Below the pieces are notes generated by a model, which was not told the DNA's origin, searched no databases, and was given only the letters and a program-made list of their open reading frames with translations. Source: Clostridiales bacterium DTU073 (GTDB taxonomy: Bacteria > Bacillota > Peptococcia > DRI-13 > DTU073). From it: a DNA stretch of 34,524 nucleotides. Of the stretch, positions 179 through 2,305 are shown piece after piece (within the stretch, counting starts at the first letter, position 1; every line of letters begins with the position of its first letter). The stretch lies in assembly GCA_001512665.1 (NCBI GenBank), contig LFSF01000031.1, positions 91,807 through 126,330 of the forward strand, given 5' to 3'. The position numbers and the translations under genes were made by a program.

Positions 179-261
179 AAAAAACGCTCTAGAATGTATT
201 GTCCCCTAAACTTGGACCGAAAATCTAAAGTTAGGGGGGCAGTACAGAAGGAGCGTTTTTT
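179..261 (+). terminator. Intrinsic terminator with an enlarged, interrupted loop
   Basis: AAAAAACGCTC (179-189) pairs perfectly with GAGCGTTTTTT (251-261), and the T-run continues beyond, which is a classical rho-independent terminator for the upstream gene. The A-tract on the left lets it work on both strands. The loop is unusually long (61 bases) and contains its own stem (196-209 with 231-245). If 195-246 and one copy of GAA are removed, the loop becomes TAGAAG, a normal terminator loop. Confidence 0.75.
195..246. mobile_element. 52-bp IS3-like end remnant (candidate)
   Basis: The segment begins TGTATTGTCCCCTAA and ends TTAGGGGGGCAGTACA, so its ends form imperfect terminal inverted repeats in the TG...CA form. 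The left end continues ACTTGGACC, which resembles the terminal repeats of IS3-family elements (TGTACTG followed by a C-run and then a TTGGAC-like motif). It is flanked by GAA (192-194) and GAA (247-249), consistent with the 3-bp target duplication made by some IS3-family members. It has no coding capacity. It could instead be an elaborate terminator hairpin. The reading as an element is inference. Confidence 0.4.
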
Positions 262-275
262 TAGTTTTACTGGTA

Positions 276-284
276 TGTTATAAT
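276..284 (+). promoter_or_regulatory. Extended -10 promoter for uvrB
   Basis: TGTTATAAT is a perfect TGnTATAAT extended -10 element, 44 bases before the chosen uvrB start and just after the upstream terminator. No good -35 hexamer is visible, which is usual for extended -10 promoters. No LexA/DinR box of the GAAC-N4-GTTC type was found nearby. Confidence 0.5.
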
Positions 285-328
285 ATTTTAGTATAAGTAT
301 AACCAGAGACAGGATGTGGAGTGACAGC

Positions 329-2305
329 ATGGATAACAGGTTTAAATTGGTTTCAGACTATCAACCTAGGGGCGATCAACCGGAGGCAATTAATACCTTA
401 GTAAAAAATCTGCAACAGGGAATGAAACATCAGGTATTATTAGGCGCGACAGGTACCGGAAAAACCTTTACCATGGCTCATGTGATTCAAAAGGTACAGA
501 AACCCACTCTGGTGATTGCGCACAATAAGACTTTGGCGGCGCAATTGTGTAGTGAGTTCAAGGAATTTTTTCCTGATAATGCGGTGGAATATTTTGTTAG
601 TTATTATGATTATTACCAGCCCGAGGCTTATGTGCCGCATACGGATACCTATATTGAAAAAGATGCCTCGATAAATGAGGAAATAGAAAAATTACGGCAT
701 TCTGCGACGGCTGCATTATTTGAACGGCGCGATGTAATTGTGGTAGCCAGTGTTTCTTGTATTTATGGACTGGGTTCACCGGAAGAATATAGGGATCAGA
801 CTCTTTCCTTACGTTTAGGGCAGAATATTGATCGTGACTTTATTTTGCGGCGGTTGACAGAGATTCAGTATGACCGTAATGACCTTAATTTTATGCGTGG
901 TACGTTTAGAGTGCGGGGGGATGTAGTGGAGATATTCCCAGCTTCATATGGGGAAAAAGCGGTCCGCGTAGAATTGTTCGGTGATGAAATTGAACGGATT
1001 GTGGAAGTGGATACAATAACCGGTGAGATTCTGGCTCAGCTTCGTCATGTCAGCATTTTCCCGGCTAATCATTATGTTACGGGTAAAGAAAAGATGCAGC
1101 GGGCTTTGGTCACCATTGAGCAGGAGTTGGAAGAACAACTGGCCATTTTCCGTCAGCGTGGTAAGTTACTGGAAGCACAACGCCTGGAACAGAGGACTCG
1201 TTTTGACTTGGAGATGATGAGAGAGGTGGGTTTTTGTTCGGGGATTGAGAATTATTCCCGTCATCTGACCGGCAGAAGACCGGGTGAGCCCCCTTATACT
1301 CTGCTGGATTTTTTCCCGTCAGATTATTTGTTAATGATTGACGAATCTCATGTTACTATTCCTCAGCTTGGCGCCATGTATGAAGGGGATAGATCCCGTA
1401 AGGAAACATTGGTGGAGCACGGTTTTCGGTTGCCTTCGGCTTTGGATAACCGTCCTTTGAAGTTTGCGGAGTTTACAGAAAAGCTCAATCAGGTTATCTA
1501 TGTTTCGGCAACGCCGCGACCGTATGAGCAGCAATTGAGCGGCGCCATAGTCGAGCAGATTAACCGGCCTACCGGTTTGCTGGATCCGGAGATTATTGTT
1601 CGGCCAACTAAGGGACAGATGGATAATCTTTTAGAAGAGATTAAGATCCGGGAAGAGAGAAAGGAACGGGTTTTGATTACTACCTTGACGAAGAAAATGG
1701 CAGAGGCATTAACGGATTATCTGCGCGAAATGGGGATAAAGGTTCGTTATCTTCATTCTGAGGTAAAGACTTTAGAGCGGATGCAGATAATCAGGGATTT
1801 ACGCTTAGGTGTCTTTGATGTCTTGGTTGGGATAAACCTGTTGCGTGAAGGATTAGACCTTCCGGAGGTTTCCTTGGTGGCGATTCTTGATGCCGACAAA
1901 GAAGGATTTTTGCGCTCAGAGCGTTCTCTCATTCAGACTATCGGTCGGGCTGCACGTAATGTGCGTGGGCAAGTTATCATGTATGCAGATGTGGTTACTG
2001 ATTCCATGCGGTTGGCGATTGAGGAGACCGAACGACGCCGCAGAATTCAGAGTGAATTCAATCGAAAACATGGGATTGTTCCGCAGACAGTACAAAAAGA
2101 GGTGCGGGATGTAATTGAGGTTACTTTGGCTGCTGAGGAGCAGACCGAGTATCAGGTTGATGTTTCTGCAATGCCGCAGAAGGAACTACGTAAGCTGATT
2201 GCCCGCCTGGAGAAGGAAATGAAGGGGGCAGCTAAGGAGTTGGCTTTTGAGCGGGCTGCGGAATTGCGTGATATAATTATTGAATTGAAGACTCAGTTAA
2301 GGTAG
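329..2305 (+). CDS. uvrB: UvrABC excinuclease subunit B
   Basis: UvrB is the damage-verifying ATPase of nucleotide excision repair. It is loaded onto DNA by UvrA and then recruits UvrC for dual incision. The 658-residue product has the full family layout: the N-terminal [17 protein letters not shown] block, a Walker A motif GATGTGKT at about residues 39-46, the tyrosine-rich DNA-clamping beta hairpin ([12 protein letters not shown], about 92-103), a DES box in the middle, a helicase C domain, and a C-terminal UVR motif ([10 protein letters not shown]) that contacts UvrC. An in-frame ATG at 314 exists, but ATG 329 has GGAG (318-321) seven bases upstream and matches the usual UvrB N-terminus. 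uvrA follows after 9 bases, so the two are one operon. Confidence 0.96.

What the first reader, a model, noticed from the sequence alone, without database searches (positions are those of the whole stretch)
179..261. A tiny IS3-like remnant appears to have landed in a terminator loop
Removing 195-246 and one GAA restores a normal terminator (AAAAAACGCTC, loop TAGAAG, GAGCGTTTTTT). The insert has TG...CA inverted ends with C-runs like IS3-family termini and is flanked by GAA on both sides, a 3-bp target duplication. At 52 bp it would be little more than two abutted IS ends, with no transposase. Being self-palindromic, it extends rather than destroys the hairpin.
Basis: partly seen in the sequence, partly recalled or inferred. 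Interest (0 to 1): 0.5.

Follow-up and report, generated by a model that had tools for sequence, protein, structure and literature searches.

The report
Mini-transposon hairpin inside a terminator
A 52-base leftover of a jumping gene sits in the loop of the stop-transcription hairpin before the DNA-repair gene uvrB, and similar leftovers in other bacteria suggest that this kind of jumping gene often lands in such hairpins.

Summary
Window 195-246 is a 52-bp TG...CA palindrome between two GAA copies (192-194, 247-249), inside a terminator stem (179-190 / 250-261) before uvrB. Two of six family relatives carry the homologous short terminator empty; none carries the insert.

The own genome has no second copy and no rve-domain transposase. 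Elsewhere such ends belong to IS3-family elements. A strict end-to-end pattern found 52-56 bp relatives at 10 loci in 8 genomes. Of 23 minis collected, 14 have flanks pairing over at least 12 bases across the insertion (swapped flanks 42 of 506) and 8 a 3-bp duplication (22 of 506). Of 21 assigned flank pairs of full-length IS in two genomes, 14 have a 3-bp duplication, 11 of these with arms of at least 10 pairs.

The unit resembles the IS left end, which carries its own hairpin, closed by a short tip. In three of four genomes compared the tip mirrors the left end. Deletion in place or movement in trans remains open. The terminator is predicted to keep working. New variant of a known kind; moderate interest.

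The parts
179..190 (+). left arm of the host terminator stem
   Evidence: fold; homologous arm in G002 and G006
192..194 (+). GAA, left copy of the 3-bp target duplication
195..246 (+). 52-bp IS3-end mini-element; left half TGTATTGTCCCCTAAACTTGGACC resembles IS left ends, right half ATCTAAAGTTAGGGGGGCAGTACA
247..249 (+). GAA, right copy of the 3-bp target duplication
250..262 (+). right arm of the host terminator stem and its run of 7 T (256-262)
   Evidence: fold
314..2305 (+). uvrB, downstream gene
   Evidence: PRK05298.1, TIGR00631

Best explanation
Window 195-246 is a palindromic mini-element of an IS3-family insertion sequence lodged in the loop of an intrinsic terminator. Shown by sequence comparison: ends, duplication and empty site; the same kind of 52-57 bp unit in terminator loops in other genomes; IS copies with such ends flanked by hairpin arms and 3-bp duplications. 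Inferred: the IS left end carries its own hairpin, and this hairpin closed by a short CA tip is what remains once the transposase genes are gone, most likely by deletion after a full IS had inserted (about 0.5; trans-mobilised MITE about 0.35). Because it is a palindrome placed in a loop, the host stem and T run stay joined, so the terminator should still work and the insert is tolerated (not tested).
For: 3-bp GAA duplication and fold. Empty terminators in G002 and G006, insertion in 0 of 6 relatives. Strict mini pattern in 1 of 46 class genomes (the own one), 3 of 398 phylum genomes and 6 of 189 genomes of family f40 (overlapping sets: 10 loci, 8 genomes), all 10 of 52-56 bp although 40-68 was allowed. 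Of 23 minis, arms of at least 12 pairs in 14 versus 42 of 506 swapped-flank pairs and 35 of 920 random sites; 3-bp duplication in 8 versus 22 of 506. Empty-site energy mean -18.5 versus -8.9 for swapped flanks (0 of 10000 permutations as low) and -11.0 for random sites. IS left flanks: A5+ run in the last 30 nt in 41 of 79 versus 307 of 3950 background. Assigned flank pairs of IS copies: 3-bp duplications 5 of 7 in G025 and 9 of 14 in G046; maximum with shuffled right flanks 3 and 4. Transposase orfB of L250: IS3 family, E 2e-70. The G025 mini (L230/L251) equals the left end of that genome's IS for 51 nt, then CA and duplication CTA.
Against: No second copy or rve transposase in the own genome, none in G001, G002, G006. 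9 of 23 minis show no arm of 12 pairs and 15 of 23 no 3-bp duplication (one of the 15, L192, has a 4-bp one). L195, L153, L186, L187 and L060 are not clear terminators, and L191, L193 and L246 are weak. Random sites also often fold well: -15 or lower in 426 of 2300, against 13 of 23 minis. Right tips that mirror the left end (G025, G027, G047) are not what simple deletion to the right end would leave. Flank pairing across contigs is an assignment, and flanks of two different genomes also pair well (mean arm 11.3 and 11.9, though 0 and 0 duplications). Of 6 IS copies read within one contig, 2 have arms of at least 12.
Confidence: 0.82

Rival explanations
1. The 52-bp unit is a true MITE: two left-end-like termini moved in trans by an IS3 transposase, not a scar left in place.
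For: G566 has three near-identical minis in three terminators, two with a duplication (TTTC, GAA) and one without. Tips mirror the left end in G025, G027 and G047. All 10 strict minis are 52-56 bp.
Against: Numbers found per genome are low (1-4; not every hit was read), while IS ends number 7 and 14-15 in G025 and G046. A 52-bp element leaves almost no DNA between its ends for the circle intermediate of IS3 transposition (recalled). Eremococcus mini L108 carries the right-end tip of its IS, as a deletion would give.
Confidence: 0.35
2. An ordinary long terminator hairpin that grew by duplication or drift, with a chance resemblance to IS ends.
For: It folds as one nested hairpin.
Against: Empty homologous terminators in two relatives; end pattern in 0 of 100 shuffles; backwards control pattern in 0 of 46, 1 of 398 and 0 of 189 genomes; exact 3-bp duplication.
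Confidence: 0.03
3. The nested hairpin is a selected regulatory RNA or attenuator acting on uvrB.
For: It lies before uvrB and folds strongly.
Against: No Rfam family at gathering score (best 19.3 bits against 50); absent from 6 relatives; by eye a TATAAT-like element shared with relatives lies downstream of it (window 279-284).
Confidence: 0.05

Closest known systems
IS1397 and ISKpn1 (IS3 family, insert into palindromic units / REP)
   Same: IS3-family elements that choose palindromic DNA as target (PMC1525189, passages seen).
   Different: There the target is REP/palindromic units of E. coli and Klebsiella; here intrinsic terminators, plus transposase-less 52-57 bp derivatives.
Bacterial MITEs (RUP, BOX, SPRITE)
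   Same: Short, palindromic, transposase-less; SPRITE is described as terminator-like (PMC10969869, passages seen).
   Different: About 52 bp, with almost no sequence besides the two ends, one to four found per genome, placed inside an existing terminator loop.
IS1447 group (IS3 family of Firmicutes)
   Same: IS3-family element with 3-4 bp duplications (PMC6211511, passages seen).
   Different: Its ends start 5'-TA and transcriptional slippage is the topic; the passages seen do not speak of insertion into terminators.

Membership tests
IS3 family (autonomous element) | orfA/orfB transposase with HTH and DDE integrase core | tested here: not met
   52 bp is too short for a gene; no PF00665 hit in the own genome. 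Related full copies do encode it.
IS3 family (autonomous element) | IS3-type TG...CA inverted ends | tested here: met
   The left-end motif occurs in 80 listed loci, of which at least three (L060, L101, L108) are minis; not each was checked for a transposase. In L205/L250 and L207 such ends flank an rve-domain gene, in L250 an IS3 transposase by NCBIfam.
IS3 family (autonomous element) | 3-4 bp target duplication | tested here: met
   GAA at 192-194 and 247-249.
MITE | no transposase, inverted ends like those of an autonomous partner | tested here: met
   the partner is known from other genomes only
MITE | multiple copies in the genome | tested here: not met
   One copy in this genome. Other genomes: three in G566.
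MITE | mobilisation in trans | not testable with these tools
   needs a transposition assay
Intrinsic terminator | G+C-containing stem followed by a T run | tested here: met
   12-bp outer stem and 7 T. The simple scanner, whose loop limit is 8, found none.
Intrinsic terminator | stops transcription | not tested
   no RNA data

The most novel reading that the evidence does not exclude
An IS3 lineage found mostly in Bacillota takes the intrinsic-terminator hairpin itself as its target, and sheds about 53-bp left-end hairpins that stay nested in the host terminator, turning it into a telescoped terminator without loss of function. This would be an unnamed class of palindromic mini-elements and a largely harmless landing site.
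Probability: 0.55. Interest if true: 0.6.

Novelty: new variant of a known kind. Interest (0 to 1): 0.48.

Why it matters
It gives a sequence-level case of safe-site targeting, possibly by shape: an IS that enters a terminator loop keeps the terminator arms and disturbs no gene, and its smallest derivative even lengthens the stem. It could explain unusually long terminators in genomes that have lost the IS, and it offers a test of whether IS3 transposases read hairpins (cruciforms) or sequence.

Tried and rejected
Native long hairpin: rejected by empty sites in G002 and G006. Second copies in the genome: none. TGTANTGNCCCC alone has 5 hits there, of which 2 are the mini's own two ends, and the backwards control has 4. 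Rfam: nothing at gathering score. Plasmids: no match. Viral contigs: 0 matches for the mini pattern and 0 for the closest left end. Counting junction-spanning base pairs did not separate minis from swapped flanks well (21 of 23 against 355 of 506 at 11 pairs) and was replaced by arm length and energy.

Rows dropped before counting the 23 minis: truncated or tip-changed left ends (L159, L184, L225/L249, L228/L245), left ends with a different inner hairpin (L160, L161), and repeat fetches of one locus (such as L151 of L149, L152 of L150, L154 and L252 of L194, L185 of L108, L230 of L251). Not every hit was fetched or read. Of the 80 loci listed (81 stretches reported), L068 was dropped from the left-flank count because it begins at the IS end.

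Literature: the listings of searches showed, by title and start of abstract, no paper on IS3 insertion into intrinsic terminators or on 50-bp IS3 minis; two were capped lists (25 of 33 and 15 of 90 shown). The library is open-access only, so absence is weak.

Full report
Observation. The described structure is present. The outer stem 179-190 / 250-261 ends in a T run. GAA stands at 192-194 and 247-249, and the insert is 195-246. The stretch 170-275 folds at -41.7 kcal/mol, z -6.9, with 0 of 200 shuffles as good. With the insert left out (both GAA copies kept) the flanks fold as a plain 12-bp hairpin of -13.6. The end-to-end pattern is found once in the window and in 0 of 100 shuffles. The simple terminator scan lists nothing; it allows loops of 3-8 only.

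Empty site. uvrB was located in 7 of 7 genomes of the family held, the own one included. Upstream of it, G002 has AAAACGCTCCGGAAGGGGCGTTTT and G006 has AAAAACGCTCCATTAGGGGGCGTTTTTTT: the homologous short terminators, both empty. G005 has an unrelated short terminator; by eye I see none in G003, G004 and G001. The insert is in 0 of 6 relatives.

Parent element. The own genome (1.67 Mb, 52 contigs, 96.4% complete) has no second copy and no rve domain, so the parent is gone or unassembled. Elsewhere the left-end motif TGTANTGNCCCCNTAAANTTNGAC gave 81 stretches (80 listed loci) in Selenomonas, Anaerovibrio, Megasphaera, Eremococcus, Facklamia, Halobacillus, Bacillus and others, also outside Bacillota (Chitinophaga) (record titles); many lie near contig ends, as repeats do. 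At least three of the 80 are minis. The Facklamia element (L250, 1558 bp) has an orfB that scores 237.9 bits against the IS3 transposase model (cut-off 160), with rve and HTH_21 domains, and an orfA-like HTH protein. In the window's class, G027 holds a 1556-bp copy (L243, its transposase frame interrupted by a stop), and G025 holds left ends with an orfA start and right ends with orfB on separate contig ends. G001, of the window's family, holds a truncated left end in a terminator-like setting but no IS3 transposase hit.

Same kind elsewhere. The strict mini pattern was found in 1 of 46 genomes of the class (the own one), 3 of 398 of the phylum sample and 6 of 189 of family f40. These sets overlap; together they give 10 loci in 8 genomes. 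The backwards control rang in 0, 1 and 0 genomes. All 10 are 52-56 bp though 40-68 was allowed. With 13 looser finds (52-57 bp for all together) I have 23 minis. In 14 of 23 the two flanks form an arm of at least 12 pairs (one mismatch allowed), against 42 of 506 swapped-flank pairs and 35 of 920 random sites; for the strict ten it is 7 of 10. A 3-bp duplication is present in 8 of 23 against 22 of 506. Examples: G566 has three, each in a terminator of the GAGAGCC...GGCTCTC type; Megasphaera L155 (CTA) and L156 (GAA); Eremococcus L108 (TTC); G025 L251 (CTA). Against this, L195, L153, L186, L187 and L060 are not clearly inside terminators, and L191, L193 and L246 are weak.

Full-length copies. 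In G025, 7 left and 7 right flanks of the IS, best assigned to each other, give a mean arm of 13.1 and 5 duplications; shuffled right flanks give 9.4 (max 10.6) and at most 3. In G046, 15 left and 14 right flanks give 12.9 and 9 duplications; shuffled 9.7 (max 10.5) and at most 4. Arm of at least 10 together with a duplication: 4 of 7 and 7 of 14. The assignment itself favours arms and duplications, which is why the shuffles were treated the same way. Pairing flanks of the two different genomes also gives long arms (11.3, 11.9), since the flanks are terminator-like, but no duplication. Across 79 left flanks, 41 have an A5+ run within 30 nt against 307 of 3950 background. Of six copies read in one contig, L078 (arm 17; also among the G046 pairs) and L112 (arm 12, 4-bp duplication) are in hairpin loops; L089 and L110 (the latter only 1016 bp) have a 3-bp duplication but no arm of 12; L243 and L250 have neither.

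What the 52 bp is. Several left ends of this group contain a second palindrome directly inside the end, in some cases followed by a T run and the orfA start. The G025 mini is that left end for 51 nt, then CA. The right end of the G025 IS reads ...GGGGTCACCTCA, so the mini's tip is not simply from it beyond the last CA. In G027 (right end read from one copy) and G047 the tip also mirrors the left end. Eremococcus (G046) L108 is different: its tip CACTATA is that of its IS right end. Six of 23 minis have C-C or G-G at the fifth pair, as expected if the tip came from a non-identical right end. So deletion explains some, while the mirrored tips ask for palindrome correction or trans mobilisation. 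I lean to deletion in place (about 0.5) over a MITE (about 0.35) because the numbers found per genome are low. For the window itself there is no IS in the genome to compare with.

How it works. Inserting a palindrome at the loop leaves the host arms and T run facing each other; the fold keeps all 12 outer pairs. Termination is therefore predicted, not shown, to persist.

Comparison. IS3-family IS1397 and ISKpn1 insert in palindromic units (PMC1525189, passages), so palindrome targeting by IS3 is known; terminators and 52-bp derivatives are the new twist as far as my searches reach (listed in Tried and rejected). MITEs such as SPRITE are described as terminator-like themselves (PMC10969869, passages).

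Noticed in passing
L060 (UBA11021), minus strand: A lone 57-bp left-end-like hairpin with its own T run lies right after what looks like a stop codon and may itself serve as terminator. Its left end is, by eye, the closest found to the window's.
   Followed up: partly
left flanks listed (several loci): Some flanks share GTGAGCCTCCTCG-like or CAAGCCTCCTCG-like sequence (I think the Halobacillus loci, not checked one by one), so an IS subgroup may use another repeated target.
   Followed up: no
L018 (G003), about 1400-1460, upstream of uvrB: Repeated TGACCCCGAAAGA units; they look like a different short repeat.
   Followed up: no
L001, about 1290-1350, upstream of the window: The upstream ORF contains a run read as X (N bases).
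   Followed up: no
L157, L163 (Megasphaera): IS left ends carry a hairpin plus T run just before the orfA-like start, possibly shielding the transposase from outside transcription.
   Followed up: partly
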